Positions 29,761-57,179 of a stretch of 64,000 nucleotides of DNA are shown one piece after another. The first letter of the stretch is position 1, and every line of letters starts with the position of its first letter. This DNA is from Daphnia pulex (Eukaryota > Arthropoda > Branchiopoda > Diplostraca > Daphniidae), in assembly GCF_021134715.1 (NCBI RefSeq), contig NC_060017.1, positions 2,294,001 through 2,358,000 of the forward strand. Direction: 5' to 3'. A model generated the notes under the pieces. It worked only from the letters and a program-made list of their open reading frames with translations. It was not told the origin of the DNA and made no database searches. The translations under genes were made by a program, and so were the position numbers.

Positions 29761-29900
29761 CTCTCTTTTATCTGAGCCTTAATCAAAAGAGCCTGAAACC
29801 TTAGACTCCTTATCATCTTCAGCTGCTAGTTCCAGTAAATTATTAACCCTTGTTGAATTGCTATAATTATAAGATCGTAAGTCCCCCTTCTTTTAAGTCT

Positions 29901-30392
29901 TCTATTTTAATGAATTTTCAAATTCATATTTTTAATATTTTAAAATTCATATTTAATATTTTAAAATAGAATAAACAAAAATAAGTAATAAAAAAAACAT
30001 TTGATTTATTGATTTTTTTGGCGCAAATTTCAAAAAATTGTGATTTTCAATCACAAATTAAACATATAAATATATAGTTGCCCAATATACACGAATTAGG
30101 TACTAAAGGATAGAGAATGAAATAAAGCTTAAATGAAATCAATTTCTGGCTTTTCTATTTTAATGAATTTTCAAATTCATTTTAATATTTTCAAATTCAT
30201 ATTTAATATTTTAAAATAGAATAAACAAAAATAAGTAATAAAAAATACATATGATTTGATTTTTTGGCGCAAATTTCAAAAAATTGTGATTTTCAATCAC
30301 AAATTAAACATATAAATAATTGCCTATTCTACATGAATTAGGTATTAAAGGATAGGGAATGAAATAAAGCTTAAATAAAATCAATTTCTGGC
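29901..30392. repeat. tandem duplication, two units of about 245 bp
   Basis: Unit 1 (29901-30153) and unit 2 (30154-30392) are direct repeats from TCTATTTTAATGAATTTTC to ATCAATTTCTGGC, differing by a few indels and substitutions. Each unit contains the perfect inverted repeat AATTGTGATT-TTC-AATCACAAATT and a second AT palindrome (GAATTTTCAAATTC). Confidence 0.9.
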
Positions 30393-33254: not shown

Positions 33255-33780
33255 TTAAAATTGTCCGCTTATTAATATCAGACGCTCTTCCATTTTCTCA
33301 TTAGTAACTTCAGTTGATGTTATCCACATTTTTCATACCTACAAAATTGAAAGAATCAAGATCAAAGTCGAAAGAAAAATGATTTAAATCAAAATCAAAA
33401 TCACCGTAAGTTGATTTCAATCGTGATTTCAATCATATGCCATTTAAATCATCTATTGACCTCCCGATTGTCCAAAATTGGAATGGAGGATAGATAGTAT
33501 TGTTTTAATTACTAATGCTAATGATAGTTTATTTGATAAGTCGTTATAACTACATCGTACTGGTGTAAGTCTAAAACGAATTGCTTACGATAAGGCCCGT
33601 GATAAATAGCAACAGTCAAACAATCCTTCTTACAGCGACGCTTGATTTCTTGTTTTCAATGACCAGCAAAAATGTAATAAAAAAAAAAAAAACAATGCCA
33701 CGGTTGATTACAAAAAAAAAAATGCAATGTTTCATTCTTCATTATGGGAACTGGTAATTATATTAAGCAACGAGATTTGT
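33255..33780 (-). pseudogene. partial duplicate of the TTF2-like gene
   Basis: Nucleotide similarity to 39200-39930, on the same strand. One exon-like block (about 33520-33640) reads GPYRKQFVLDLHQYDVVITT, the SNF2 motif Ia-Ib region. A second (about 33260-33332) matches the exon after the DEAH motif but starts with a TGA stop. The DEAH exon that lies between them in the longer copy is absent; shared intron sequence ends near 33460. This fragment sits directly upstream, in transcriptional order, of the XRN2-like exons. Confidence 0.75.
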
Positions 33781-33789
33781 TTTAACTAT

Positions 33790-37081: not shown

Positions 37082-37405
37082 TTACGTTAACCTTAAATTT
37101 GTTAATGTTACTTTAAATACCGAGAGTAGCCCGAAAGAGATCTTTTCCTGCTGGTCACGTAAATTGTTTAATCGAGCCCGGCTCCTTGACTCACGCCTTG
37201 ACTGGCGCCTCCTATCACGTCTCCTCTCACGTCTCAGCGCTTCAATATCAGCAGGGTTTAAGATTTGCATATCGGGGGGATTTTCTCGTTCAACAACAGC
37301 TTGAATTGCGTCGGGCTATGATAGACATTGAATGTTTCCCCAAACAATTATGAAACATTTGATCAAATTTGGAGCGACAATATGGACATGCCCAACTTAT
37401 TTCAC
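37082..37405 (-). pseudogene. Topors-like RING E3 ligase fragment, copy 1
   Basis: On the minus strand the frame near 37400-37330 reads LLNWCEISWACPYCRSKFDQ then MFHN, matching the second half of the Topors-type RING finger ('W....CP.C...FD.I.H'). It is followed, after a frame break, by an Arg/Ser-rich segment (RRERRRDRRRQSRRESRSR) at 37230-37150, also typical of Topors. The first half of the RING is absent. Confidence 0.55.
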
Positions 37406-37734
37406 ACCAATTTAGCAAGCACAAATAAAAAAACATTTCCGTATGTGCTAGGGTGTTTCATCCGTTTGATCAAGACATATTCCACATAATCCCCTTTCGA
37501 ATTCTAACACGACCCTGTTTTCAGCCATTTTTAATGTCATAGGTAGTCATAAGCTTGATTTTGGAGGGTTTGCTGTCTCTTTTCTTAACATTTTTGCTTT
37601 TCTTAAGTTTTTTGCTTTTGAAAGGAAGAAATAAGGAACAACCGAAAGTAAGAGAAATAACAAATTTCAACAAAACAGCAAGATTTTTTTCAGTAAATTT
37701 TAAGTAAGACAACTAGTTACAACTAGTGAGCCTG

Positions 37735-37995
37735 GTCCCTTTACTCACGCCTGCTTCTTGACGCCCGCCTATGCCTTGACTGGTGCCTCCTCTCGCGTCT
37801 CATTTCACGCCTCAGCAATTCAACAACATCAGGATCCAAGATTTAAACATCGGGAGGATTTGGAGGTTCAACTATAGCTTGGATAGCTTGGGGCTTTAGA
37901 TAGACGTCTTATGTCTCACAAGAAAAATTATGAAATACTCGATCAAATTGGATGCTGCAGTACGGGCATGTCCAGCTTACCTCACACCAACTAAG
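37735..37995 (-). pseudogene. Topors-like RING E3 ligase fragment, copy 2
   Basis: Diverged direct repeat of 37082-37405. It reads SLSWCEVSWTCPYCSIQFDR then VFHNF, followed by a similar arginine-rich block (CGCCTC/CGTCTC-type codons on the plus strand). As in copy 1, the N-terminal zinc ligands are missing. The two copies lie about 600 bp apart in the same orientation. Confidence 0.5.
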
Positions 37996-38205: not shown

Positions 38206-41200
38206 TCAAAAAATTTCCTTCAAGTCATCAATAGATAACTTTCCATTACTTAAATTTCCCGAGAGAACTTCGTTAGCCAATCTCAACGTCTTCTCTTGAA
38301 TTTTGACTAGACCATCTTCCACAGTTCCTCTTGTTACAAAGCGATGTACGTGAACGGTTTTTTTTTGTCCGATACGATAAACTCGGACAACCGCTTGGGC
38401 CTCCAGTTGTGGGTTCCAATGCAAGTCGGCTAAAAAAATATGATTGCCTCCTATGAGGTTCAACCCCACTCCACCAGCAGACAATGACAAAAGTAGCACC
38501 TAAAAAGAGTAACTTGTTTAAACATTCGTTTACCAATTAAAACAATAAAATATTACGGGTGGTCCTTTTAAATTGCAGTTGAAGTCCTCAACAATGTTTG
38601 TTCGTTCTTGAATATTAACGCTTCCGTTAATGGATTGACATCTAATAGAATTTCGCTCAAAGTGCTTCATAAACAAATCATAATCAAAAGTTTGGTCCAC
38701 TGCGAGACTACTACTGCCTTTTCTTTCCTCTTGACTGCGCAAGTCACCCCGTCAACAATATGCTGCATTTTTGTGCTTTGATTTTTCTGGTCAAACGTTT
38801 TTGGGCTGCTTGTGGATAGGTCCAAAATTGTTTTACGCAAATTTACGTCTCCAACAAGTGACTGGGGTTCGATGTCAATTCCGTCTTCCAAAACGGGAAC
38901 TTCCGTGATGGCAAGGGAAGCATGGCAACAAACTTGTCGAAGTCGCAATAAGTGAACGAAGATTTTTTCCATGTCCCTCTTTTCGCTCAGGGCCTTGCGA
39001 GATGCAGTAATAGTATCTTCTGGTAGATTAAGTCTTCTTCTCGCGTCAAAATTACTTCATGGTTATGAACGTTTCTAAAAGGCAATAGTAAATAAGTACA
39101 GAAAACCTAAGAAATTATTTAATCATATACTTGGCGGGTAGGTCAACAAGCGGAGTATTGCTACTATCCTTGGATTGGCCTTTCGTCCGGCGCAAGAGTA
39201 TAGCTTCAGTAATCAATTTCAGACGCTCTTTCCTTTTATCATTGGTAACGTCAGCAGCTGTTATCCACTTTTACCATACCTGCATTGAAAAAAATTAGCT
39301 TTTGTCTCGGCTTTTGTACATTATAGGCACAATTGAAACAATATGTATGCATACCGAGAGATCATTCAATGGCGAAAAACCAATGAAACGTAATAGAGAA
39401 TAGAAGTCTGATTGATTGTTCTGAACTGGAGTCCCAGTTACGGCCCAACGCTTTCGAGCGCGAATTCGAGATACTGCCAACGAAATCGCAGCATTAGGAT
39501 TCCGCACCGTATGGGCTTCGTCCAGAATTATTCTTTCAAATTCGAACTTCAATAAAACGGACACACTCTTAGAACTAGCACCACCGACATCGTCACCATC
39601 TATTTCCCGTTGAGCTGTCTAAATTGAAATATAGGATGAATATTTTAGTTTTAATTACAAATTAAATGCTAACGGCAGTTTACTTGATAAGTCGTTATGA
39701 CTACATCGTACCTACTGATGTAATTTAGAATCCAATTGGTTGCGATAAGACCCGTGATAAATGGCAACCTTTAAACAGTTCTTTTTACAGCGACGATGGA
39801 TTTCATCTTCCCATTGACCTGCAAACGTTTGATCGAAACAAAAAACATTTTCACGATTGATTAGAAAAAAAAATGTTAAATTTCACTTGTCATCACGGGA
39901 TTTAGTATTTGAATTGGCAACGATTTGTTTTAACTCCACAGAATCAATACCTTATATAAAAAAAAATCCCTGATACAAATATTTTCATTTATGCTAGATT
40001 GACGATACGTAATTAATTTATATGGGTAACACATTGATAACACGGTTCTGATTGATATAGGACCTCAAAAATGTTCTGAATGCAACAGCATTCAATGCAA
40101 TTTTATTTCAAAAATAAAGGGAATTTTCGCTTACCTACGAAACTAGGAGGGCAAACAATTAATGTTCCTGTACATCTATTCATTGCAGCTGTGTTGTAAG
40201 ATGTTTCACTCAGTGAAGTTACAGCTAATTCCTTGTGTCGAAGGATCAACGCAATGAGGATTATGGTTTTCCCCATGCCCATATCATCGGCCAGAATGCC
40301 ACCTAACAAAATTTTTAATAAATTAGTTAGTGCGAAATTTCTGTTAAATATTTATGATCTACCTGCGGGATCTTCGTTTTCACGGAATAAAAGCCATTTT
40401 AATCCCGTCTCTTGATGCGGCAAAAGCGAAACCGTTAGTTGTGCTGTAGTGACTTCCTTGTCCGATGGTTTGGGACGGTTCGCCAAGGACCGATGAAAAT
40501 TTTTGAAAACTATTTGCTCCGCAGACATTTTTTCCCGATGCTGCATTTCAATAAATTTAAAAAAAGAATAAGAAAAACCTCTGCTTTAGCTTGATATGCT
40601 ACCTGATCGATTTGCAACTGCTTCTGAATTTTTAGTCGAGCCATGGCAGGGGAGCTCACAGCCAGTGAAAGTTGTGATGGGGCAAATCCATTTTTACGAG
40701 TGAAATCAATTCTTTCAGATAGCGCCCGAATTTTTTCTTCAAGTTTAGCTCCTCCGTCTTTCATGTATACTGTGATGGGTATTTTCTTGAGTTTTGCAAG
40801 CTCAGAAACGGCAGATGCCATCTCTTCGGCTGAAAATGGAGTCATATTAGGAATTTCGCCGGAACTTGTCGAAAGTTCGGTTAGTTTGTCTGCCTCAGGT
40901 TTTTGGACTTCTCTTCCGTCAGTTAATGTCTTACATACCTAAGATATTAAACAAAAATATTTTCAAAATTTATAAAAGGAGAATAATATGACTAAAAACT
41001 TACTTCATTGATGTCAAGTGTATTAATCTTTGACTTATTTCCTGAACAAGTAACTGAATCCATTGGCGACCGAATCATTGGAACCAAGCCGGCATTTGCT
41101 GCACTTTGCATGATGGCCGTAGCAGGGGTCACTCTCAGGCAGGTATCATTTATTGATGTGGCCGCGACATGACCGTCATGAACATTGTTCGGCTTAACTT

Positions 41201-41474: not shown

Positions 41475-41645
41475 CATGATTGCCTCCTATGAGGTTCAAA
41501 CCAACTCAGACAATGACAAAAGAAGCACCTAAAATGAGTTTCTTGTTTTAACATTCTTTTACCTACTAAAAACAGTAAATATTACCAGTGGTCCCTTTAG
41601 ATTGCAGCTAAAATCCTCAACAATGATCAAGTCATAATCAGGGCT
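41475..41645 (-). pseudogene. short duplicate of the TTF2-like C-terminal region
   Basis: Closely resembles 38440-38690 of the same gene, sharing ATGATTGCCTCCTATGAGG, GACAATGACAAAAG and TCCTCAACAATG. It spans the equivalents of the [12 protein letters not shown] exon end, the intron and part of the next exon. Bases are missing where the longer copy encodes the Ala-Gly-Gly run. It lies upstream of the longer copy's first recognised exon. Confidence 0.7.
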
Positions 41646-41789
41646 AAATTAATAGACCATAATTTCAACCACCACACCACCAGGACTGATTTAATCAAAG
41701 TGGACCTCCACTTCCACCTCCGGTCAGAGGTACTTTCATGATTTTAAGTTTATGTAATGTAATGTTAACTATAATTATTCGGATCGGTA

Positions 41790-42375
41790 CTATGGCATGG
41801 GGTGGTCCATAAACTGTAACATAGGGGACTGAACGCTACTGAACGTTTTCGTGTGGACAAATTTTTGACTTAAGGCATAAATCACATGGGAACATGGGAA
41901 CAACCATTTTCTTCCATTCCTTTTTTGAGTTTCAGAGACTTTGGATTTGCCAAATGCTGTCTTTATTTTGCTTGTGGTTTGTGGAGAGCTTTTGTAGCTT
42001 CTTGGGCTATGGTTTTCCAAAAACCATAATATTTATTTTATTTTGATTCTGTGGGATATCTTTATGAATGCTGAGCCCCCCTTTTTGTTGAAGTTTTTTG
42101 TGAGGTGTTTGGTACTTTGCTCTTTCCTGTAGCTCTGGCTCTGATTCTTCTGCAGAAGCGTCTCCCTCATCGCTCGATTTTGATTCGATGCATGACAATT
42201 CCTCTTGTTCTGGTGTCTGCACTAATTCTTCTGCAGACGTTCCCGCAGCGCTGGCGTTTATAACTGAATTAGCTTGATCCTCACGAGCCCTGACGAATGC
42301 ATCAAAAGCCTCTTCAGGATTGTCATTTGCCATAATTTCTGCAAAATTTGCAGCGACTTCTTCACCCCCGAGGTA
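41790..42375 (-). CDS. acidic exon(s) of unknown protein, possibly TTF2-like N-terminus
   Basis: Frame 42375-42007 encodes NPEEAFDAFVRAREDQ followed by a Ser/Glu-rich acidic stretch (SSDEGDASAEESEPELQE). It ends near KINIMVFGKP, and a second frame 42020-41790 continues with SPRSYKSSPQTTSKIKTAF. The change of frame at about 42010 could be a splice or a lesion. Unrecognised family. Its position and strand fit an upstream part of the TTF2-like gene, whose N-termini are poorly conserved. Confidence 0.35.
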
Positions 42376-42699
42376 TAAATTTATTTCCTATTTAGGACTG
42401 AAATAGTTAAATAGAGCGATTAATTTTTTTACGATTAGGATGATTTGTTGAAGTTAACAAATGAGCATCGGCCATCTTCTCATTGTTTTGAGAATCTGGT
42501 GAGTCAGCTATTTTCACAGCTTTGACTTCTTTTGAGTGAACAAGTTGTTTTGGTTTGCTTCTGCTCTTAAATTTTTACGCAATAATTTCTCGGGATTGTA
42601 TCCTTTGAACAATTTTTCCACAGGACTATACCCTGATTCAATGTGATGACATGATACTCTTTAGGACCGGAGGCATTCACTTATTGTTCACCTAACGTA

Positions 42700-43411
42700 A
42701 AAAAATCCTTTTACATCATCAGCAGTATCAGGGAATAAATTTCCGGCGTATTGGGAATGAGATTTTTCAGGGTCACAAGTGAATCTTTTCTTCTGTTGTG
42801 TTTTAGTTTGACCCTTGAAAAAATATTTCCGGATCCGGATTCTCTTGATTATGGGTCTGGTACCTGATGATGCCTTCGTTAGGGGTCACAAGATAAAACT
42901 TAGCATCTTCAACGACATTGTTTGGAAGTCCTGTGAGTAAAGTGTGATTTTTAAATTAAGATCTACACTTTCCTTTACTCTGTTAAAAATTTCCTTTACC
43001 TCTTTGACTTGTTTTTTCTATTTCATCTTGATGTGGAAAATTAGGAGCAACTTTTAAATCGATTCCTCCACTTTCATGAGGATTTCTTCCTGTCATCTGC
43101 CTCCAAAAATTCGACAATGTTAGAACTTTTGCTGGATTTCTGTTTAAAATCCATTGATTATCATCGGTATATTTTTTTATGAGAGGTCTTTTATCAACAG
43201 ACTTGATTCTTTTATCTGGCTAGAATGAAGAAAAAAAATCACCACCTCCTTTTGTTCCAGAGGTCTCAATATTCAAATTAGAGTCCCAAACAGCGCCGCT
43301 TTTTCTCGATTTTCCTGGCGAAACCGATGGTTCCCTTATGGTGGAAGTCCGGGCACGCGTTGAAGGCATTTGCTGGAGCAACTTTTTAAAGAGGGAAAAA
43401 GAGTTTTCCAA
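42700..43411 (-). CDS. unrecognised exon-like ORFs next to the bacterial insert
   Basis: Minus-strand open stretches: 43411-43220 (starts MENSFSLFKKLLQQMPS, then RKSGAVWDSNLNIETSG), about 43215-43010 (DNQWILNRNPAKVLTLSNFW and GGIDLKVAPNFPHQ), about 42935-42860 (LPNNVVEDAKFYLVTPNEGI) and about 42800-42690 (KKRFTCDPEKSHSQYAGNLF). Codon use and the intron-like gaps suggest exons of a host gene, perhaps the 5' part of the TTF2-like locus. I recognise no domain. The bacterial sequence starts just upstream of the first ATG. Confidence 0.35.
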
Positions 43412-43424
43412 TGAGAGCGTCTTT

Positions 43425-44181
43425 TAAAATGGACCCTCTCCCTTCGTGAAGCTGAGCTCCAAAAAGCCCGGGCTAACCTCCAGGCAGGCAGGCAGAGGCA
43501 TTTCAGCGGATGAAAAAACTTCTACCCACAAAAGCCATCAGCAAAAAAAATTTTTGATGACGCAGAAGGAAATTTTCTTTCCGCCTTCTGTGGCTGTAAA
43601 ATCCGCACAGGCTGATAACATCCAAGTAAAACTCTCCCATGGCTCCCATTATAGGTATTGCATCCGATGCTTATCTCATTGAATGATCCCTAAAGAAAAC
43701 TCATTGTTAAAAAAAAATTGTCCAATTAGACCCCATTCAGATTAACTTTGAAATCTCTGACAAGGAGACGAAAGTCTTTATTTCCCTATCAGACGACTCT
43801 CTTTATCGTTGCGTCGGTCGTCTGACATTATTTGATCCGCTGATTGATCCCAAAACGGGAACCTCCCCTCTTCAAGCCTATTTTCCTAATCCCAATAATC
43901 TATTGAAAGTGGGTCAATTTGTGCGCGTTCATCTGCAATGAAGGGTAATCCCGGACGCTCTTTTGGTTCCAAGACGTTCAGTATTTGAAGGGGCAAAAGG
44001 ACAATTTGTTTTTGTGAAAACTCACGACAATAAAGCCGAAATGCGAATTGTGGAGGGACGAGCTTGGGGAGACAATTTTTTCTCGTCACAAAATGCAGAA
44101 GAGGTTGTCGTTGATGGTGTGATGAAATTTCAAAAGGGATGTCCTCTTAAATTTATTCTTTTTGTGAAGAATCAGGTCCAG
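43425..44181 (+). pseudogene. bacterial RND efflux membrane fusion protein (AcrA/MexA type), truncated and decayed
   Basis: Periplasmic adaptor of a tripartite drug-efflux pump. The sequence starts inside the coiled-coil hairpin (LREAELQKARANLQAG, then LLPTKAISKKNFDDAEGNF) and continues through the beta-barrel (VFISLSDDSLYRCVGRLTLF, GTSPLQAYFPNPNNLLKVGQ) and C-terminal domain (LLVPRRSVFEGAKGQFVFVK). The N-terminal third and lipoprotein signal are absent, so the insert begins mid-gene. Frameshifts occur near 43510 and 43570, and a TGA follows GQFVRVHLQ near 43940. It lacks introns and is followed at once by the pump gene, as in acrAB-type operons. Confidence 0.85.
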
Positions 44182-46443
44182 ATGTTTTCGAAATTTATAT
44201 ATTCATCGTTCTATTTTTTTCGGTGGTTATCTTTATCATCCTGACCATGACAGGTCTTGGGTTAATGTACACCATGACCGTTTCCCATTTTCTAGACATT
44301 TCACCCCCAACAGTGGTGATCAGCAGTGGAACCTATCTAGGAGCGATATTGCTGAGGCTGGAGAAAAAACTGTGACAGTCCCTATGGAAACAAAAATAAA
44401 TGGAGTTGAGGACATGATTTACATGTCTTCCGTTTCTACAATTAACGGCATCAGCGAAACGACCGTCACTTTTGATGTATGGTCCAAGACCGAAATGGCG
44501 GTCGTCAATATCCTGACGCGGAATAATCTGGCAGTTCTGCCATCTGAGTTGATAAAAAAGGCCTTTCCATCAGTAAAAAAACCCCGAATATTCTTGAGTA
44601 ATTTGTTTCGAATCCCCCGACGGCCACTTTGACGAGATTTATTTAGCCAACCAAGAAAAATTACCCCCAAGGCCACCATCAAGGCCATGGAAGACGTTAT
44701 CAGCCATGTGCTGATAGCCATTGTGTGCGTTTTATGTTCTGTGTTTATTACTGTTGCTTTTTGGGGAGGCTTGACGGGAAAATTGTATTAATTTGCCATT
44801 ACCATTGCCGTGTCGATGGTTATTTCAGGGTTTTTAAGCCCTGCTTTATTAGCTCTTCTCTTAAAGCCAACATCCAAGCATTCAAATGTTTTATTCCAAA
44901 CCTTTAATGCCTATTTTGAAAAAGCAGTCCATCACTATAGTTGTGCCGTTGTCCATACAATCAAACGTTCTTGAATCACTTTTTTGCTTTTTGGTGGGCT
45001 GATTGTTGTGGGGTTGGGCTTGTTTTAAAATACCCTGATTAGCTTCGTTTCCGAAGAACATCAAGGATACGTTGTGGCTCTTGTAAAAATGCCTGAGGCT
45101 TCCTCACTCAACCACTCCTTTAAGGTAACGGAAAGGCTCGAAGCGATGGCACGAGATATTCCCGGGTAGAACACACCATCAGCCTGATTGGGTTTTATTT
45201 CTTGACGGGACAGCTGAAGCCAATCTTTGCCTCTTGCTTTATTCGACTCAAAGATTGGAAGAATCCTCCAGAAAAAGAACACACAAAAAAATTTAAAAAA
45301 ATTCCATCCAAAGTTTCTCAGATTCACGAAGGACTTGTTTTAATCTTTAATCCACCGTCCATTCCAGGGCTTGGAGAAATGGCGGGCGCAGAATTTTTAT
45401 ATCGACTCTCGCGGAGGGACAGGGCTCCTTCAATCCCTCCAAGAAGCGACTCAAAAATATCTTCAAGAAGCACAATACCTTCCAGAAATAGCCCAAGTGT
45501 CGACAACCCTTAAAAGCAATGTTTCTCAGTTTTTTGCCAACGTTAATCGTGAAAAAGCTAAGAGCATGGGTGTTGGACCATATCTTTATGACCTTAAATG
45601 CTTGTTTGATGGGGTTTTTATGAGAATAATTTTAACTGGTTAGGGCGGATCTTAAAAGTCAAAATTCAGGGCGAAGAAGATTTCCGTTCAAATGCTAAGA
45701 GTCTCGAAGTGTATGTGTTGCGCTCTCGAACAACACAGGTCATGATCCCCCTCAGTATAGCCTGTGTACTTTTGAGCGAGTGACAGGCCCAGAAATATTC
45801 GATCATTTCAATGGCTATACAGCAGCCTATATAAATGTTTTATTGCTCCTTAAGCAGGGTATAGCTTTGGTCAACTGGTGGAGTCTTTGAAAAAACTAGC
45901 TCTCAAAAATTTACCCTCTGAAATGAACCTCTTCTAGACAGGTTATGTTAAACAATCAACAAAATTTTAATCGAAAGCGGTTTTTGAGTTTATTTTTGGC
46001 TTTATTATGATGGTGCTGATTTTGGCCGCTCAATACGAAAAAATTCTCCTACACTGTTCTGTCTTGTTGTCGATTCCCTTTGGTGTGCTGGGAGCTTTAG
46101 TTGCTGTCATTTTAAGGGGTCTTGAAAATGATATTTATTTTTAAATAGGCCTTCTTACCCTCATCAGATTGTGTGCTAAAAATGCCAGCTTAATTGTCAA
46201 ATTTGCGATTCTTGGGTGAGAAAAAGAGGGGCTTTCGATTGTGGCGGCTGCGATCTACGCCGTTTGAATCCGCTTACAACCCATCTTAATGACCTCTCTT
46301 GCCTTTATTCTGGGAGTTCTTCTCCTTTGTCTCAGTCATGGCGCAGGTGCTGCCAGCCGGAATTCCATTGGAACAGGTGTTTCAGTAGGCATGGTGGCCG
46401 CCATTTTTATGGCCATATTTTTTATTCCGCTTTTTTATAAGTG
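44182..46443 (+). pseudogene. bacterial RND efflux pump (AcrB/MexB, HAE1 type), decayed with internal deletion
   Basis: Inner-membrane proton/drug antiporter. Pieces in order: N-terminus MFSKFI, then SPPTVVISS, NGVEDMIYMSSVSTINGISE and TVTFD (44182-44490); a jump to [18 protein letters not shown] and FAITIAVSMVISGF (44670-44830); SEEHQGYVVALVKMPEASSL (about 45050); IFNPPSIPGLGEMAG with an altered frame (45345-45390); MMVLILAAQYEKILLHCSVL and LSIPFGVLGALVAVIL (46000-46130); and [20 protein letters not shown] (46370-46440). Length is about 2.26 kb against about 3.1 kb for intact genes; roughly 275 codons are missing between about 44600 and 44660. There are many stops, for example TAA at 44789-44791 inside LTGKLY*FAITIAV. 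Confidence 0.9.
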
Positions 46444-46519
46444 ATGAGTTCAGCATTTAAGTGAATTCATCAGAAATCTATCTTTCCGTCTTTTAGTCCA
46501 TAAGGATTCTGCCCCATGA

Positions 46520-47545
46520 TCTGAGGAACGTTTTCTTTAGGATCTGTGATGCTCTTAAGTGCTTGCACTGTAGGGCCTGATTATGTCCCTCCGGTTGTGG
46601 AGACTCCCTCTCAATCGAAAGTGTCTTTGAAGGAAGCGGGCACTTATGCTTCCTTGGAATGGTGGAAATCTCTTGAAGATCCCCAGCTTAATAAAGTGAT
46701 TGAGACAGTCCTTCGTGAAAATCAAGACCTGAAAATGGCTGTTGCACGCATTGAAGAACACCGAGCCGTGGCGTCAAGGAAAGTGCCCTTTTACCCGCCA
46801 TAGACCTTTCAGGAAATGCAACCCATAATTATTTAAAGAAAAATGCGCAGACAGAAGCCGGAGTACTGTCTTCCTAAGATGACTCTATAATTCCTTTAGT
46901 TACAACGCTTCCCAAGTGACGGGCTTGCTATCTTATGATATTGATTTTTGGGGAAAGATCCGCCGCCAAGGAGGAGAAGTCGCTTTTGCATATCTGATGG
47001 CGCAAGAAGAAAACCGCCAAAACCTGATTCTTTTTCCTTATTCGCTAATGTAGCCCAGTGCCCCAGTCCTATATAGGTCTTTTGGCTCTTTATCATCAAT
47101 TACAAATTGTGCGGGAGGTTCAAGCCAATCGAAGAACTGAAAGTTCAAAAATCCAGAATCCAACATGAAAAACTGATACAGGTTTCGGTTTGGCTTGTAC
47201 TTAGATCTTGAATTAAAGCAGGCAGAATCAGAAACAGCCCTTTCAGCCGGGCAAATTCCTCTTTTAGAAAAAAATCGCCCAAAAGGAAAACGCCCTTTCC
47301 GTTTTGCTGGGACGCAATCCTCAAGAAATTCCACGCGGCCGATCCTTTGACACCCTTAAAAAAACTAGCCTGGAAAGTGCCGTCTTTACCTTCCAAGTTA
47401 CTGAAAAGACCCGATATTCATAAAGCGGAAAACTTAATCCAAGCCAACAATGCGTAGATTTGCGTGGCTAAGGAGAACTATTTTCCACAAGTCAATCTCA
47501 TCGGTGTTCTGGGATTAGGGTCCGTACAATTCAAACGCTTGTTTG
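46520..47545 (+). pseudogene. bacterial outer-membrane efflux lipoprotein (OprM/NodT family), truncated and decayed
   Basis: Outer-membrane channel partner of RND pumps. It starts with a lipobox-like LLSACTVGPDYVPP (46546-46590), then LEWWKSLEDPQLNKVIETVL and NQDLKMAVARIEEHRAVASR. After frame breaks come LLSYDIDFWGKIRRQGGEVA (about 46930), QAESETALSAGQIPLLEK and ALSVLLGRNPQEIPRG (47215-47345), and RPDIHKAENLIQANNA, then AKENYFPQVNLIGVLGLGS (47405-47525). Similarity stops about 100 residues before the usual C-terminus, so the insert ends mid-gene. Stops and indels are frequent. The spacing after the pump gene matches a three-gene operon. Confidence 0.88.
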
Positions 47546-47560
47546 ACAGACGTTGTTTGA

Positions 47561-47628
47561 AAAACGGGGAGAAGAGGGAATATGGGAGGAATGGGAGGGA
47601 CTCCCATTCTCCCTCTTCTCCCCGTTTT
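47561..47628. repeat. large imperfect palindrome at the right edge of the bacterial insert
   Basis: A 28 nt left arm (47561-47588, beginning AAAACGGGGAGAAGAGGG) and right arm (47601-47628) are inverted repeats with about two mismatches and a 12 nt loop. The sequence following is no longer recognisable as bacterial efflux protein. It could be a MITE relic, a hairpin at the integration joint, or a bacterial terminator-like structure. Confidence 0.85.
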
Positions 47629-47639
47629 GCCCTACCAAG

Positions 47640-48755
47640 AGACGGCGCCATGCTGCGTTGCCAGATAAATCGGCTAAATAAAACAGATGTGAAAGAGCCC
47701 TATACGAGCGTATACTGTAAGCAAGTAAGGTTTTTCAGTCAGGGGCACCCTTCAATGAGCTCTGATTTTGTTCAAATTTTGAACATAAGCTCTTCTTATA
47801 ATCACCATTTTCCTGTTTAAACCCCGAAAGTGTAATTATAATTCGTTAAATATATAAATAAATTAAATAATGCTAAAACGGTACAAAAAAATCTTTTTTT
47901 GAGTCGGGGCAACGGGGGCACCCCTGAATAAAAAATTTTTGAAGAAAAAATAATTTGCCTTTTTTAAGGTCATAACACACCCCGATCTCGTTCCCCAAGA
48001 TGAAATTCAAAAATTCGATAAAAATGGGATACCCTAGGCACATCTAGCGTTCGAAATTGAAACTAAAAATATTCCAACTTTGCAAGAATTTTGTCAAATT
48101 TGACACGAATTGACCCAAATATTCGTGAATATTCACAATGGATATTCATGAATCCGGAAATGAATATTCAGGTAAATTTCCATGAATATTTACCCAAAAA
48201 TATTACAATTCAAATGAATATGAATTTTAATTTTTCCAATTCGAGTTGAACTATATTCGAAAAATCTCAAAAAATGCAATTCAAGTTGAATCGATTCGAA
48301 TCAAACGCAATTCGGGTGGGAGCGCTACTCGACGGTCGTTTTATTAAAAATATAATTGTTTCAACAAAAATTGTGTCGGGGCATACATCCTATTGCTACT
48401 TTCACGTAATAATGCATCATATGTGTATTTTTTATTTTTTATTTTTCATAGAAGGGAAAATACATGAACCATTATTACACAGCCGTTAATATCCACAATG
48501 TGTTTATTTTTTACATCTTCGGTGACTCCTCCTGTTGACGGAAAAGAAAGATTTATTTCTCCGTGTTTATTTTTACAATTCCAAAACTTTGCGTATAGCA
48601 AATGAGACTGTAGCCTAAATATCAATTGAGCTTTCTAAAACTCGGTATTTTTTTTCAAAATAATGCACACCGCTCGTATGGTTAAAAAAATGGTCAACTT
48701 TTATCCGATTTTTCAAACTTGTAGGCTGTAGAATTTTTCTGAAAAATCTGGTTTT
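47640..48755. other. intergenic, AT-rich, with dispersed ATTC/GAAT motifs
   Basis: No gene recognised. Between 48100 and 48310 the motif GAATATTCA and its half sites (ATATTCGTGAATATTCAC, GAATATTCATG) recur many times, giving a self-complementary cluster. GGGGCACCC occurs near 47742 and again near 47909. Confidence 0.5.
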
Positions 48756-48759
48756 ACTT

Positions 48760-51700
48760 TCAGAGTAAAGAGCTTGTCACTGGACCCTGAAAAGTAAATA
48801 ACAGCAAATTTTGTATAAATAAAATCAACGGTGTGTTGTACAAATTTACAAACAAATGTCTGATATTGACTTACTTCATCAGTGGAACTATTCTTACGAC
48901 GAAAAGTACTGCTATTAAGTTGCACAGCAGAGAGTTCGGCAGAACTTCTAATACTTCCAATTGCTTTAGTAAAAATACTCACTATAGTTCCGAGAGTAAG
49001 AACAATCAGCATACCAGTCACCGTGTACCAAAGATATGAAATTCTTAAAAGAATAAACGGCTCATCTTTTCTAAATTGATTAATTTTTATGACTCGAGAA
49101 GAGTAAGCAGTGAAAGATGGTATTATCAATACTTATAATCAGATGTTGAATTGGTAAAAAAGTAAGAGCTCTCAGTAGATCCGTTGTAAGCGGAGCAATT
49201 GTCAATGCTGAATGGTTTCATCTGATTGTTATGAACGATTCCACTCGATTTTGCAATTTGCGCGCTTACTCCTAGCCACATCATGAATCCAAAGGCAGTT
49301 AACATGCCCACTCCAGCTCCCTTTTCAGAGAAATATAGCAAACGTTACGGTTACTTCATATTTTCTACGTTTTTTTTTTTTTAATTTAGTAAAAACAATT
49401 TACGACAGAATTTGCACAAGGAACGAATATTCCAAGAGTAAAAACCCCTAAGATCGATCCAGCTACAGCGCCGTCGAAACTCAACGTGGCCTGCGTAAAA
49501 GTGATAAAAATAAATTTAAGTAAAATACGCAATTTAACCATATTAGGTTCTTATTTGATACATACGTCTAAAATGGTTTTAATGTGAGAAACAAGAAAAA
49601 CCATACTAAAACTAAGAATTCCAAATACGAGAGACACTGCTTTGACAAGGCGAGTAGCAGTCTGGTCCAACATGTTTGGGAATACGGGTCGAATGAAATC
49701 TTCCAGTATAACAAGAGCTACCGCATTCAAGACACTAGATAAAGTGCTGTGGTAAAATAAGAAACACACAAACATAAAGTATTTCTGATATTTAATATTC
49801 AGGGAAAATGCAATAACTAATTAGCCAGTGAACCTGAGAGCACCACTGAAAATACCGGCTACAAACAATCCGGGAAGTCCGGGAAAATCTCCAAGCACGT
49901 CCATGACAAAAAATGGAACTATTTGGTCAGCTTTATCAATTACCTATTAAAAAGAAATTCGGGAATTATGCATCAATACTGATACATACTCAATACATTA
50001 GCGTATGTAGAAGCGATGCACCGTAAAATACAGTATAACGTATATTTATACGATACCGTATAAATAATTCAACACATTTTTTGGGCATAAATTATTTCAG
50101 AGGCTTACCTGGGCAGTCAAAGGATCGCAATCGAAATATTTCGAATACATGACTAAACCAACAAATCCACAAAGATATATTATTCCACAAACAGCGACCA
50201 GGTTACTCCACATGGATCTGGTTTGGAAAAATGTAGGTACCAAAATTTGTAAATTTTTAATAACTTTTTTTTTTCAGTCGATTCGTACATTTTTGCACTG
50301 CGGAGTGTTTTCATCACAAGAAATCGTTGAACAGTGGTCTGGTCTACTGCATACCAACTCATCCAGTAGAAGAAGCCTCCAATGACAAGAGACCATACCT
50401 ACAAGACCCCTAAAATAAATCTAGTTTCCATAATTAACAGACAAGTAAACAAAATATTTACCGTGTGGGGAGTTGTGGGGTCGATATCGATGCTACATAT
50501 CAAAGTGCAGAGTTTACCCAAAGCGAGTTCAAATTTAGATTTCTTGAACAAATTTACTTCAAAAGTTCAATGCGAGACGAGTTAAAATTGCGGTCCCACA
50601 CAGTTCTCAGGCCGCCAACGTCTATCACCCCCTTGACGATCAAAATTATAATGGACCCATACATCATTAAGAACTGTATAGTATCGGTCCAAACAACAGC
50701 TTTGATCCCACCCTGTAACATATCAAAGCCAGTTTTTGCAATAATCATAAATTAGCAGTCCTATATAGTTAGACTCTGCTTTTAATTTACGAGTGCTGTG
50801 TAGAATGTGCAGACGGCGAATAAAATTCCGACTGAAATCAAGGTATTGATTCCTGTAACTAAACAAAGTTAAAAAAAAAATAAGACATACCCTCACAGTT
50901 TTCGTAATAACATAAATGAAATGGTTTATGTCTAGTAAAAGCGGTAAATACTACCTTGTCTCAGCGCCCAAGAAGGTCCGACGGCAACAATCGATAGATA
51001 CAATAACTATTAAGAACGTTAGCCTTTAACTATAACTTTATACGGGGATTCAGATAAATTGCGTTCATGTTACCTGCTTTACCACGAACAGCATAGACGC
51101 AAGCCGTCTGATGACAGGGTTGAATCGTATCTCGAGATACTTCAGGACAAATACAAAGGCAAATCGCAACAAATTATGGTTATCCAATCATTGATTAACG
51201 TACACAATGTACAACAACACACCTGATTTGCTGAAACAATTTTCAAACGATGGAAAATAGGCAAATATAATTGAGTCGCTGCGGCTATGGAAAGGACGGC
51301 AGAAACGGTTAACCAAATGTACATTGTTCCGTTTAGGTAAACTTCTGTCGGGGCACCTAACAATGTCGTCGCTGAAATTGAGCTAAAAAAAAATAAGAAA
51401 ATTGAACCGTCTGTTGAATTATTTTATTCTTTCTCGTCTGATTTATTTATTAATTTTTTGTTACAGCTACACAAGAAGCAGTTCGAAGGCTAACAAGTCA
51501 CAAGTGCTTACTAGAGAATAGCATACAACATTAGCGGATTTTTTTAAACACGGATGTTTGATTCGCACCGTGATTGGGGTTTAATTATTTTACTTCTTCA
51601 TTCAAGGCTTTTAGTAAAAATTTGTAAAATAATGGGAAACGAAGCAGGAAGATTTTCCCTAAAATGTCAAAGTATAAACTGGAATGTTTTCCGAATCCCG

Positions 51701-51952
51701 AGATATTTTGAAGCAGTGGAAAATGGAAAGCTGTGGCACAATGAAAAACTACAAAACGTACCTAGCGGCAAGAGACATGGCTACGGGGAAGATGGGCATC
51801 TTTCTTCCACCCATCAGGTAGTCGGAGGTCGAACCGCTGGCGCCACGCCAAGCGTGATAGATTCCGACTAGCGAAGACACGACGAGAGTCAAAGCAAACA
51901 GAAAATAATCCACCCAGGTGAACAGTTTCGGCCAAGAATCGGACGTTGCCAT
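48760..51952 (-). CDS. SLC5-family Na+-coupled solute cotransporter, copy 1
   Basis: Plasma-membrane sodium/solute symporter of the SMCT/SMVT branch (monocarboxylate, multivitamin or iodide); the substrate cannot be read from the sequence. Fifteen exons: 51952-51762, 51382-51223, 51139-51074, 51006-50955, 50858-50791, 50712-50558, 50492-50462, 50398-50289, 50217-50109, 49943-49834, 49746-49566, 49490-49404, 49320-49133, 49070-48875, 48786-48760. All borders are GT-AG with agreeing phases, giving about 576 aa, a normal SLC5 length. Motifs include [20 protein letters not shown] (TM1), [69 protein letters not shown] and [18 protein letters not shown]. About 13 membrane segments are expected. The last exon is tiny and ends PVTSSLL. 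A paralogue lies 1.75 kb upstream. Confidence 0.9.
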
Positions 51953-51974
51953 GATTTCTGCGCTTGTTGGATTT

Positions 51975-53700
51975 TCTGTGGAGTCAAGCCAGTAATTTAT
52001 AAATGCACACGGATCACGAATTTAGATCAAATAAATTTTTTTAATCAACGCTTTAAACTTTGGCTTGGACGCAGAAGGAGAGTCGAGTTTGAGTTTGACC
52101 GTTTCTCAAGAACCTGATTCAGTTGAATGCCGCTATTTCCCTCAGCACAGATAAGAATACTGAGTTTGTTTTTTACTGCTCGTTTTTTTTTTCGAGATAG
52201 TTTTTTTAACCTTACCTCCATTTTTAGAGAAACGCCCATCTAGTTCCTTATTTGTATTTTGTTCGTGTCCTCTATGACCTCTCGCCTTAACTGAGACTTT
52301 TCTTTTTTTTCTCATCTTAAATTCTTATTATTTTGTGTAATAAAATTTGAAATGTAGTTTTAATTCACGATTTTATTTTTTTAAATTAGAAAATGTAATT
52401 ACGTCCTTCGATAATCTATTGAGAAAATTCGTTCATGACAATATCGTGATTTCTCCAGAAATAAAAAATGTGTTTGAAGTAGAGAAAGGTTTGTTCACAG
52501 TTCGGGAGTCGAAATCCTACAATGATGAATAACCATTGCTTATCTTGCGTGCAACAGTACATACTATGCGAACGCACTATACGAGCTAACTAGTCCTTTA
52601 CATTTTATGTCTGTTCGCAGAACAAGAACCCAGCTTTTGGTATATTGTTAGTAACAACAATTCTGTTAGTTGAACTCGTATAGCTATCATTACACGCACA
52701 ATTCCAGGCAACTCGAATTAATGATCGAAGCTGGATGCTTGCCCCCCATCACTTTGAGGATGTTTATCCGTTAATGGTCAAAAACTTTAGATTAGCTCGT
52801 TTCGCCAACTGGCGGAATTGGCGAATAAAAGTTTCTCCTAACGCGGGAATCGAACTCGATGACGGATCTCATCGTGATACCTTTGGATCAGTAGGCGACG
52901 ACTTATCCAACAAACCTATCCACCCTTCATAAAACTGGCTTTAATTTATCTAAGCCCATAGGGACAAAAAATTAACTGCTCCAAAGTTAGCATTAATTTA
53001 GTGCTCTCCAAAAATAAGTGCTCAAAATTTAGTGCTCTCTCGCATCCGTAAGTCCCTAGCTAGAACAAGTTTTCAAAAATTCAAAAACTAACGTGTAGGT
53101 TTCACACACGCGGTAAAGTCCTAAATTAATTTGAAGACGGCTAGCGTTAGAACAAAAACATAAACGCCTGTTATGATAAAAAAACCTTATCTGAGAAAAA
53201 TACTGATGTGTACGACTACGCAACCATTACACAATGTTAAAATAAACAGGTCACAGAAAAAGGAGGAGAGGAAATTATTTGCGGTGGACAATTATAGCTA
53301 TATCTATATATCGAATCACTGGCAGAGTGGGCACTCATTTTCTTATAATCGATACTTTCGTCAAGTAATACGAAGTTTTATCATGGCAGTAGGTTGGAAT
53401 TTGAATCGATGTATCGACTTGGCTTATAAAGGAAGATAAGAGAATCTAAGAAAGATGAATAAATCTCGCGACTGAAAAAAAAAACTAGACGAACACGATC
53501 GACTGATAAATAGATTAATACTATATGAATGCGGGATATATACCGTACGAAGATCACAGCAACGGGAGCCGACATTTATCGATTGGCAAAGCAGTCGACC
53601 TATTGTATTGTCAACAGTCACGTTAAATTGATTGCCTTACACGTCGACGGCATCTTCAAGGAAAAAGTTGTTTTTTGAAAAATTGAAGACGCTAATCGAG
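51975..53700. other. spacer between the two SLC5 genes
   Basis: Should hold the promoter and 5' UTR of copy 1 and the 3' UTR of copy 2. ORFs at 52347-52532 and 52735-52932 (+) are unrecognised. A perfect hairpin TTCGCCAA-CTGGCGGAA-TTGGCGAA lies at about 52800-52824. TTTAGTGCTCTC occurs twice near 53000-53040. Confidence 0.5.
52840..52925 (-). repeat. possible tRNA-derived SINE relic
   Basis: On the minus strand, GAGTTCGATTCCCGC resembles the T-arm/B-box of a tRNA. It lies about 60 nt downstream of GTCGTCGCCTACTGATCC. I could not fold a complete cloverleaf and found no anticodon stem, so a functional tRNA is unlikely. Confidence 0.2.
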
Positions 53701-53701
53701 T

Positions 53702-56700
53702 CTATTGAGAAAATTCATTCATGGCGAAGACTTGGTTCACTTGTGCCTGAAACACGATTCCAGTCGACAATTCATAAATCATAATGAGGAAACATTCAAT
53801 TAAATTATTTCTTGTTTTAATGCAGATAATTTCGGCGATTATTAATTTACCATCTCAGTGGACGAGTTGTTTTTAATATTAGCGACACCGTCGTTAAGTT
53901 CCTCGGTAGAGAGTTGTGTACTGTTTCTAATAATGTTAATGGCTTGACTTACGAGACTCACTAATGTTCCAAGAGTAAGGACAATCAGCATTCCAATCAC
54001 TGTGTACCATAAGTATGAAATCCTCAAGAGAATGAAAGGCATTTCTTCTTGCCTGTATAGAAAGTAAGAAAAATTACAAAAAGAATGTTGAATCTGCCCT
54101 TTGAAATTTATTTACTCATTAGCCATTGTCAAATTGTGCAAGTTTGTGCTCAGTTGAAAAGAATTTGAAGTCCCATTATAAGCAGGACAATTGTCGGTGC
54201 TGAAAGATTTCATTTGGCTGTTATGAACAACCCCACTGGATTTGGCGATCTGAGTACTCAGTAGAAGCCACATCATCAATCCAAAGGCAGTTAGTATACC
54301 CACTCCAGCCCCCTAATAACAAAATATGGATCTGATTAATAATATATGACGTTAAAATTGACTCGACAGACCGTACGACTTTCGATCATTACATAAATCA
54401 TTGGCAAAGATACTTACGGCAGGATTGGCGAACGGAACGAAAATACCGAGAGTGAAAACACCTAGGATCGATCCGGCCACAGCTCCATCAAAACTCACCG
54501 TTGCCTGCACAGAATAGCGGGGTACAGTAGAGATGGTCATTTATTAGGAGGAGCACATATAACTGTAATTTAATATGCTTACGTCTAATATGGTCTTCAC
54601 TTGAGCAACAAGGAAAACCATACTGAAGCTGAGGCCGCTAAATAGCAGAGACACTCCTTTAACGAGACGAGTAGCGGTTTGATCCGGCATATTTGGAAAG
54701 TAAGGCCGGATGAAATCTTCATAAACTACAAGGGCCACCGCATTCATGACACTTGAAATTGTGCTGTATTATTCGCATCATTGTCATTGTCATTGTAAGG
54801 GGAGCACGAAAAGCTAGATTCAGGATTCTTCAAAATAAATAATCATCGGTATTTTCAATAATGGAATTAACCTGAGAGCGCCGCTTAAGATGCCTGCAAC
54901 AAAGAGTCCGGGAAGACCAGGATAGTCACCAAGCACATCCATAACGTAAAAAGGAACTATCTGGTCTGCTTTATTAATCACCTAGAAAACAAATAATTCA
55001 TCGTGACTTTTTATTGTACATACACTTGAAAAGGATGCCAAGCTTTACGTACCTGGGATGTCAAAGGATCGCAATCAAAATATCTAGAGTACATGACTAA
55101 ACCAACACATCCACAGAGAAAAATGATCCCACACACAAAGACCATGTTAATCCACATCGATCTGTGTCCCAAAGAAAAAGAAAAATGTGATCAATATTCG
55201 TCGACATTAACAGTCTCCACAAGTACCCATTTTACATCTGTGCGCTGCGTAGTGAAGGCATGGCGAGTGATCGTTGTACGGCAGTCTGATCCACTGCATA
55301 CCAACTCAACCAATAAAATAAGCCACCGATGGCAAGCGACCAAACCTGTAGCGTCCCACATTTCACCAATTTTGAATCAGCTACGAGCGCATATTCTCTA
55401 AATGTATTACCGTATGTGGAGTTGTAGGGTCGGTATCGATGCTAAAAATAAAAATGAAAACTGTGAGAAAAACAATATAATAATTTGAATAAATCGGAAC
55501 ACTAAGGAGATAATACTTGAAGAGTTCTATGCGGGAAGAGTTATAATTACGCTCCCAAACAATTCCCAGACCGCCAACGTCCGACACCCCTTTGATTAGT
55601 AGCATGATGATTGATCCATAAATCAATATAATTTGTATGGTGTCTGTCCAGACAACTGCTTTGATTCCTCCCTGTCAAAAGAAAGCCCAATAAACTATTT
55701 TTGTAGAGTAGCCTAATGAGTAATTAAAAATGTATCATTTTCTTGTATATAGATATGCATACGATTGCTGTGTAGAAGGTGCAAACGCCGAACAGAATAC
55801 CAACTGATACGTAGGCATTAATTCCCGTGACTAGATGCACAATATCAAAAACAGAAAAATCTATGCAGTGTACTGTACTTGACATTTAATTAGTTACACT
55901 ACCTTGGCTAAGAGCCAGCGAAGGTCCATACGCCACTATCGATAAATACAACAACTGTCGAGAAAATGTCATAATAAAATGTCTTGATTATTATCAGTGG
56001 GTTTATTTTACCTGTTTCACCACAAAGAGTATCGTAGTAATGCGTCGAATGACAAGATTGAATCGTATCTCCAAGTACTGTGCATAAAATACAATAAGAT
56101 GAAAAAAAAATCTAATAAGAACAGGATTTCATTATACCTGATTTGCTGAAACAAGTTGCAATCGGTAAAATATAGGTAAATAGATGTAACTCGCAATCGG
56201 AGTGCAAAGAAGAACAGAAGATATGAACCACAGATACATAGTCCCATTCGTGTAGATGTCTGTAGGTCCGCCGAGTAGTGTCGTAGCTGAAAATGAACTG
56301 AAATCATTCGCGCAAAAACAAAAACATTTAAAACTTCCATCTCTCTCTGATGGGTAGCAGGATTTCTTTTATTAAGGAGTTGTTTTTTTTAAGACGGTTT
56401 ATAGGCAAATGTTTTCTTTTCATTCGTTGCGCAATCTCGAAATGGCATAGCAACACCGTTGAGTCGGATCGGTCAATAATCGGTAAAGGACTACAAAGTA
56501 AAAAAATACACTGTTATGCAGTAGATACCTGGCGGCAAGAGACATGGCTACGGGTAAGATGGGCATCTTTCTTCCACCCATCAGGTAGTCAGAGGTCGAA
56601 CCGCTGGCGCCACGCCAAGCGTGATAGATTCCGACTAGCGAAGACACGACGAGAGTCAAAGCAAACAGAAAATAATCCACCCAGGTGAACAGTTTCGGCC

Positions 56701-56719
56701 AAGAATCGGACGTTGCCAT
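53702..56719 (-). CDS. SLC5-family Na+-coupled solute cotransporter, copy 2
   Basis: Paralogue of the gene at 48760-51952. Exons: 56719-56529, 56297-56138, 56077-56012, 55954-55903, 55830-55763, 55671-55517, 55441-55411, 55345-55236, 55161-55053, 54981-54872, 54763-54583, 54504-54418, 54312-54116, 54052-53851, 53746-53702. Exons 1-12 have exactly the same lengths as in copy 1; only exons 13-15 differ. Predicted protein about 587 aa. Motifs match copy 1: [66 protein letters not shown]. The extracellular loop in exon 13 has N-glycosylation sites (NGT, NLT). The C-terminus (AQVNQVFAMNEFSQ) is unrelated to copy 1. If the exon 14 donor is not used, a TAA follows three codons later at 53842. Confidence 0.9.
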
Positions 56720-57179
56720 GATTTCTGCGCTTGCTGGAATTTCGACGGAATTAAAATTTAATAAATTAATCGCTTTAATTCAATAAAACACCTGGATGAA
56801 ATCGTTGTTACACTGACTGGACGCGGAGTCGAACTGCAACTGCCTCTTTCACCTATTTTAGTCGACTGCCGGGGATTTTGGATGCGCATTTCTCTCCGTT
56901 TGTTTGCCGTATCTTTTTTTGAACCTTTCACTGCTCTCGGGTTCTTCACAATCAAACTATTTGATCGTTGCATCTATTCTTCTACACATGGCCTTCAAAC
57001 CTGTTTCCCTAACATTGTTGAGCTATTCTAACTGTTTTACATTTCTCCCCACCGAAACTACAGCGCTCTAGTAGTACTTGTTTCGGTTTGGCAGCTCGAG
57101 GCTACATGTACGCTACTGAATTTACACATCCGTGTGGGAAAATTTCAATCAATAACAACCCGCAATCAGACTGATGTAA

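What the first reader, a model, noticed from the sequence alone, without database searches (positions are those of the whole stretch)
43425..47545. Decayed bacterial tripartite RND efflux operon inside an arthropod genome window
Seen: collinear, intronless plus-strand fragments of a membrane fusion protein, an AcrB-type pump and an OprM/NodT lipoprotein, in operon order. The fragment starts mid-adaptor and ends mid-channel, carries many stops and frameshifts, and the pump has lost about 275 codons. Arthropod exon fragments lie on both sides. Known: this gene order is typical of Gram-negative bacteria. Inference: a piece of a bacterial, perhaps endosymbiont, chromosome was inserted in the nucleus and has been decaying neutrally, a bacterial counterpart of a NUMT.
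Basis: partly seen in the sequence, partly recalled or inferred. Interest (0 to 1): 0.9.

Follow-up and report, generated by a model that had tools for sequence, protein, structure and literature searches.

The report
Decayed bacterial pump genes in arthropod
A piece of bacterial chromosome carrying three neighbouring pump genes appears to have been pasted into an animal's own DNA, most likely an arthropod's, and has been falling apart there since; it is a relic of past contact with a bacterium rather than a working set of genes.

Summary
On the + strand lie, in operon order, a periplasmic adaptor, an AcrB-type RND permease lacking about 270 codons, and roughly the first two thirds of a NodT-type channel, with many stops and frame changes. 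The adaptor is nearly complete from about 43,176-43,236, so "starts mid-adaptor" is wrong. Low CpG and a minus-strand coding stretch suggest, without proof, that foreign DNA begins near 41.6-42.0 kb.

An old nuclear insertion is well supported. A protein from JGI data (cluster of 13 contigs) runs from 39 of 39 identical channel residues through the hairpin into 72 of 72 identical right-flank residues: the right joint exists outside this assembly, in a copy lacking ~0.8 kb. A second record is 82/84 identical through an out-of-frame tail; a third shares an adaptor frame change. A chimera or contaminant peculiar to this assembly does not explain these.

The donor is unresolved: named relatives are 36-46% identical over aligned codons, about equally near in Chlamydiota, Beta- and Alphaproteobacteria. 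Left joint, copy number and host species are untested. Kind: a nuclear bacterial transfer like the Wolbachia insertions, with no Wolbachia or other known symbiont shown as source.

The parts
43176..44169 (+). Nearly complete periplasmic adaptor (MexA/RND_mfp type) remnant with frame changes and stops
   Evidence: MexA match from its residue ~6; RND_mfp pieces; frame-tolerant alignment, Neochlamydia residues 6-376 of 392. The first ~50 bases (signal peptide) are the weakest part.
44351..44651 (+). N-terminal remnant of the AcrB-type RND permease, up to the deletion
   Evidence: tblastn of relatives' proteins; ACR_tran 3.5e-7 for the piece 44168-44629
44657..46441 (+). C-terminal part of the RND permease after a deletion of about 270 codons; frame changes and stops
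   Evidence: ACR_tran up to 5.9e-19, RND_permease_1 up to 1e-21, alignments to 5 relatives
46534..47544 (+). Roughly the first two thirds of a NodT/OprM-type outer-membrane channel, broken
   Evidence: outer_NodT 4.6e-16, OprN 2e-8, alignments to 3 relatives, P0001/P0002/P0003
42013..43100 (-). Minus-strand coding-like stretch, possibly a broken divergent bacterial gene belonging to the same insert; origin not proven
   Evidence: Coding signal z 7.2 and 8.6 in two 1.2-kb stretches; one strong segment 42013-42369 and weaker ones; low CpG; no family, plasmid or PDB relative
47561..47703 (.). Right joint: 28-base-arm hairpin plus about 75 following bases, resembling a dispersed repeat
   Evidence: Inverted repeat 93% complementary, fold z -7.05, similar stretches in P0005 and P0006
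47704..47817 (+). Right flank shared residue for residue with P0003, beyond the part shared with P0005/P0006
38209..41625 (-). Host flank, left: SNF2-helicase gene pieces and a stretch similar to part of that region
   Evidence: SNF2-rel_dom and Helicase_C; 41476-41625 is 82% like 38440-38596
48716..56779 (-). Host flank, right: two diverged copies of a sodium:solute-symporter gene
   Evidence: SSF 3.7e-5 in 55384-55674; copies 65-98% alike at DNA level. The pieces of the nearer copy gave no SSF hit of their own.

Best explanation
A few kilobases of a Gram-negative bacterial chromosome, holding an adaptor-permease-channel operon and possibly part of a divergent neighbour gene, were inserted into the nuclear DNA of an animal (most likely an arthropod) between an SNF2-helicase gene and a symporter gene pair. 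It does not work as a pump. Released from selection it has collected stops, frame changes and deletions; another copy on record lacks a further ~0.8 kb next to the hairpin repeat. Shown: the bacterial homology, the gene order, the decay, and the right joint in other assemblies. Inferred: insertion by end-joining repair, release from selection, bacterial origin of the left minus-strand stretch, and an associated bacterium as donor.
For: Homology and order; scores far above 8 control stretches and the reverse strand; breaks in all three genes; the segment's CpG o/e (0.767) is below all 494 equal-length overlapping stretches outside 41,626-47,560 and all 12 non-overlapping ones. P0003 (3 member sequences, 13 contigs) carries 39/39 channel residues and 72/72 right-flank residues. 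P0001 is 82/84 identical through an out-of-frame tail. P0007 stays in one frame where 5 of 5 relatives' adaptors must change frame.
Against: No read data. The left joint was not located in independent data: P0007 diverges from the window left of 43,275. No close donor was found. P0003 has its joint at another place in the channel, so it is a different copy or allele. Host bins of 1 kb also reach CpG o/e 0.70. The contigs behind P0001-P0007 could not be read, and their host is unknown.
Confidence: 0.86

Rival explanations
1. Assembly chimera or contaminant: a contig of a bacterium with a degenerating genome was wrongly joined into an animal scaffold.
For: No reads were seen; contamination of a mite assembly by bacterial fragments is on record (PMC12507336, search listing only). 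A degenerating symbiont could hold a broken pump operon.
Against: Animal genes on both sides within a few kb; the same channel-to-flank joint in a JGI cluster of 13 contigs; shared out-of-frame reading in P0001 and P0007.
Confidence: 0.06
2. The segment came into the host, or spread in it, as cargo of a mobile element; the hairpin at the right joint is that element's end.
For: A hairpin repeat, also seen in P0005 and P0006, abuts the channel remnant here and, at another channel position, in P0003; several diverged copies are on record (P0001, P0002, P0003, P0007).
Against: No matching repeat was found at the left side within the window and no transposase was looked for beyond the family searches. 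P0003 shares the unique flank beyond the repeat, so it is the same place, not a new insertion.
Confidence: 0.05
3. A host-recruited, still useful bacterial gene.
For: None direct; P0001 keeps an open frame of 84 residues of the channel.
Against: All three genes are broken many times and the permease has lost ~270 codons. A tripartite pump needs two bacterial membranes (recalled).
Confidence: 0.02

Closest known systems
Nuclear Wolbachia transfers (NUWTs), e.g. in Glossina morsitans (PMC3998919, passages seen) and filarial nematodes (PMC12693587, abstract and outline seen)
   Same: Bacterial chromosome pieces in animal nuclear DNA, mostly broken; Glossina also has a 2,089-bp insert with only six pseudogenes; in nematodes inserts record infections since lost.
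   Different: There the donor is known and its living relatives are near; here no donor is identified and the nearest named relatives are 36-46% identical over aligned codons. No RND operon was named in the passages that I saw.
NUMTs, nuclear copies of mitochondrial DNA (recalled)
   Same: Passive insertion of an organelle's or bacterium's DNA followed by decay.
   Different: The source is not the mitochondrion: such pump genes are not mitochondrial (recalled).
RND tripartite efflux operons of MexA / AcrB / OprM-NodT type
   Same: Gene order, families and spacing.
   Different: Broken in every gene; a remnant, not a working member.

Membership tests
Nuclear bacterial transfer (NUWT-like) | Sequence of bacterial origin | tested here: met
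   Bacterial operon families and order
Nuclear bacterial transfer (NUWT-like) | Host nuclear sequence on both sides | tested here: met
   SNF2 gene to the left, symporter genes to the right; immediate left joint not located
Nuclear bacterial transfer (NUWT-like) | Joint between bacterial and host DNA seen in independent data | tested here: met
   Right joint only: P0003. Left joint not seen.
Nuclear bacterial transfer (NUWT-like) | Joints crossed by reads at host depth | not testable with these tools
   No reads available
Nuclear bacterial transfer (NUWT-like) | Donor is a known associated bacterium | tested here: inconclusive
   No close named relative in genome contigs or plasmids; the genome search did not complete
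RND tripartite efflux operon | Adaptor, permease, channel in one operon order | tested here: met
RND tripartite efflux operon | Intact reading frames able to make a pump | tested here: not met
   Stops, frame changes, ~270-codon deletion, truncated channel

The most novel reading that the evidence does not exclude
The segment is an old fossil of a bacterium outside the usual Wolbachia donors, present in more than one host lineage: P0007 shares the adaptor's frame change yet differs at a third of its aligned residues, and P0002 is a 75% relative without frame changes that the window has. It would record a lost association with a bacterial lineage that is not otherwise sampled.
Probability: 0.35. 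Interest if true: 0.6.

Novelty: new member of a known kind. Interest (0 to 1): 0.42.

Why it matters
Decayed bacterial inserts record past associations that left no living symbiont. The described cases that I looked at are Wolbachia, though some searches were worded for Wolbachia. A case with an unplaced donor, a host joint attested in other data and shared frame changes could date an association and its loss. It also warns that RND-pump or 'TolC' hits in animal-derived contigs of metagenomes need not be bacterial genes: P0002 bears that source name, although its own origin is not settled.

Tried and rejected
Donor search. The search for related loci in genome contigs gave 1 distant locus (33% identity); viral contigs gave none. 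Plasmid tblastn gave only relatives below 60% identity for P0002, the adaptor pieces and a periplasmic permease piece, and 60-71% only for the most conserved 58-residue permease end (149 of 1586 records). DNA-level search of plasmids gave 3 short matches. No clade stands out, so no donor is named.

Left side. The minus-strand pieces found no confident family, plasmid or PDB relative (Pfam's best were E 0.027-0.086, below cut-off). Coding signal does not tell host from bacterial: SNF2 exons score z 9.2. I first thought that several frames in use showed a broken gene, but one search gives four segments in two frames, of which only 42013-42369 (33.8) stands above the wrong-strand background inside the insert (up to 17.2); that one is a single open frame and could be a host exon. 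So bacterial origin of the left stretch stays an inference.

No tRNA and no Rfam family was found in the window. Of the papers listed (capped lists; 20 of 39, 4 of 4, 8 of 25, 8 of 49, 2 of 2, 8 of 78) no title or abstract start describes an RND-operon nuclear insertion; that does not show absence in print.

Full report
WHAT IS THERE. Between about 43.18 and 47.55 kb the + strand carries remnants of an adaptor, an RND permease and an outer-membrane channel, in operon order. I searched unbroken pieces apart. Five of five permease pieces hit Pfam ACR_tran, the best at 5.9e-19; Pfam missed all three channel pieces and found only weak HlyD matches in one of two adaptor pieces. In NCBIfam the adaptor pieces hit RND_mfp, the permease pieces RND_permease_1 (to 1e-21) and the channel pieces outer_NodT (to 4.6e-16). 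With frame changes allowed, relatives' proteins score 375, 963 and 433, against at most 56 in 8 other window stretches and at most 46 on the reverse strand.

CORRECTED EXTENT. The adaptor is nearly whole. The open frame 43,224-43,424 matches MexA from its N-terminal part (7.7e-6), and four relatives' adaptors align from 43,176, 43,207, 43,227 and 43,236. The permease has lost about 270 codons between 44,651 and 44,657-44,672. The channel ends 157-161 codons before the ends of its Persicobacter and Caballeronia relatives. Frame changes and stops are 7-11 and 1-3 (adaptor, 4 relatives), 7-14 and 5-9 (permease after the deletion, 5 relatives) and 8-11 and 1-2 (channel, 3 relatives).

A POSSIBLE LONGER INSERT. 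Left of the adaptor the minus strand has a strong coding signal (z 7.2 and 8.6; the + strand of the insert itself gives 3.4-6.4, wrong-strand stretches inside the insert up to 3.8, SNF2 exons 9.2). Only one segment, 42,013-42,369, is strong by itself (33.8; wrong-strand background up to 17.2). CpG o/e is 0.618 over 41,626-43,175, below all 550 equal-length overlapping stretches outside 41,626-47,560; for 42,010-43,175 alone, 19 of 558 are as low. The main segment (0.767) is below all 494. Over 47.5-48.5 kb CpG rises to 1.22, but single host bins of 1 kb also go down to 0.70. A stretch at 41,476-41,625 is 82% like one in the SNF2 gene region, so the left joint should lie between 41,626 and about 43,180. 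I lean to a foreign piece that starts near 41.6-42.0 kb and includes a divergent gene, but no relative of that gene was found, and a host exon is not excluded.

THE HOST SIDE. To the left lie SNF2-helicase exons. To the right lie two diverged copies of one gene, of which the farther matches the sodium:solute-symporter family. Further left, two similar exons match polysaccharide deacetylase and look like a chitin deacetylase with alternative exons; that this means arthropod is recalled, not tested. The host species is unknown to me.

INDEPENDENT JOINTS. P0003, from JGI data (3 member sequences, 13 contigs, longest 10,074 bases), is identical to the channel residues encoded at 46,621-46,737 (39 of 39), then runs through the hairpin into residues identical to those of 47,602-47,817 (72 of 72). 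P0005 and P0006 resemble the hairpin and the next ~75 bases but then diverge, so that part looks like a dispersed repeat; P0003 goes on into flank that only it and the window share. The joint therefore exists outside this assembly, in a form lacking about 0.8 kb next to the hairpin. The hairpin is strong (z -7.05), and hairpins favour deletion (recalled). P0001, from a source labelled 'lgn' (Logan, as I read it), matches 82 of 84 residues including the out-of-frame tail. P0007 (JGI) matches 43,275-43,478 in a single frame (67% over 72 columns; the window has one stop there, P0007 none), whereas 5 of 5 relatives' adaptors leave that frame by 43,375-43,420: P0007 shares the frame change. In the next 50 bases 4 of 5 relatives use mainly another frame and one, Persicobacter, mainly the same. 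P0002 (JGI, source name 'outer membrane protein TolC') is 75% identical and is open where the window has two frame changes and a stop; whether it is a bacterium or a less decayed copy cannot be said from 115 residues.

DONOR. Unresolved. Over aligned codons Neochlamydia is 37-44% identical, Caballeronia 39-46%, Agrobacterium 36-43%, Persicobacter 37-39%, and an E. coli plasmid permease 39%. Permease scores of 963, 943 and 931 for the first three do not separate them. These relatives come from a plasmid collection only. The genome scan found one distant locus, and the whole-genome tool did not complete in 17 tries.

READING. The best account is a nuclear bacterial transfer, old enough to be riddled with breaks, with at least one other form that has a further deletion. 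It resembles what is described for Wolbachia inserts in Glossina, where more than 60% of transferred genes are pseudogenes and one insert of 2,089 bp holds only six pseudogenes (PMC3998919, passages), and the 'ghosts' of lost symbionts in filarial nematodes (PMC12693587, abstract). It is not a working pump. I call it a new member of a known kind, above average in interest because the donor is not an obvious Wolbachia and because several data sets carry the decayed sequence. The bold reading, a fossil shared by diverged hosts, rests on P0007 and P0002 and needs their contigs.

Noticed in passing
47561-47703: GA-rich hairpin (28-base arms, 93% complementary) followed by a short conserved stretch, apparently a dispersed repeat: P0005 (NCBI source, 6,108-base contig) and P0006 (JGI) carry similar stretches in other surroundings.
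   Followed up: partly
51759-51976 and 56526-56743: 98% identical 218-base stretches in two otherwise diverged (65-69%) symporter gene copies, which suggests gene conversion or strong constraint.
   Followed up: no
25571-25804 and 26173-26406: Two neighbouring, 78% identical polysaccharide-deacetylase exons, perhaps mutually exclusive exons of a chitin deacetylase.
   Followed up: no
29900-30392: Tandem duplication of a ~250-base AT-rich unit, two copies 91% alike.
   Followed up: no
33475-33787 / 39621-39935, 37195-37410 / 37773-37990 and 38440-38596 / 41476-41625: Duplicated stretches, 74-82% identical, in and around the SNF2 gene region; repeats or partial duplications.
   Followed up: no
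42010-42387: 126-residue acidic open frame on the minus strand with the strongest coding signal left of the insert and no relative found; a host exon or part of the bacterial piece.
   Followed up: partly
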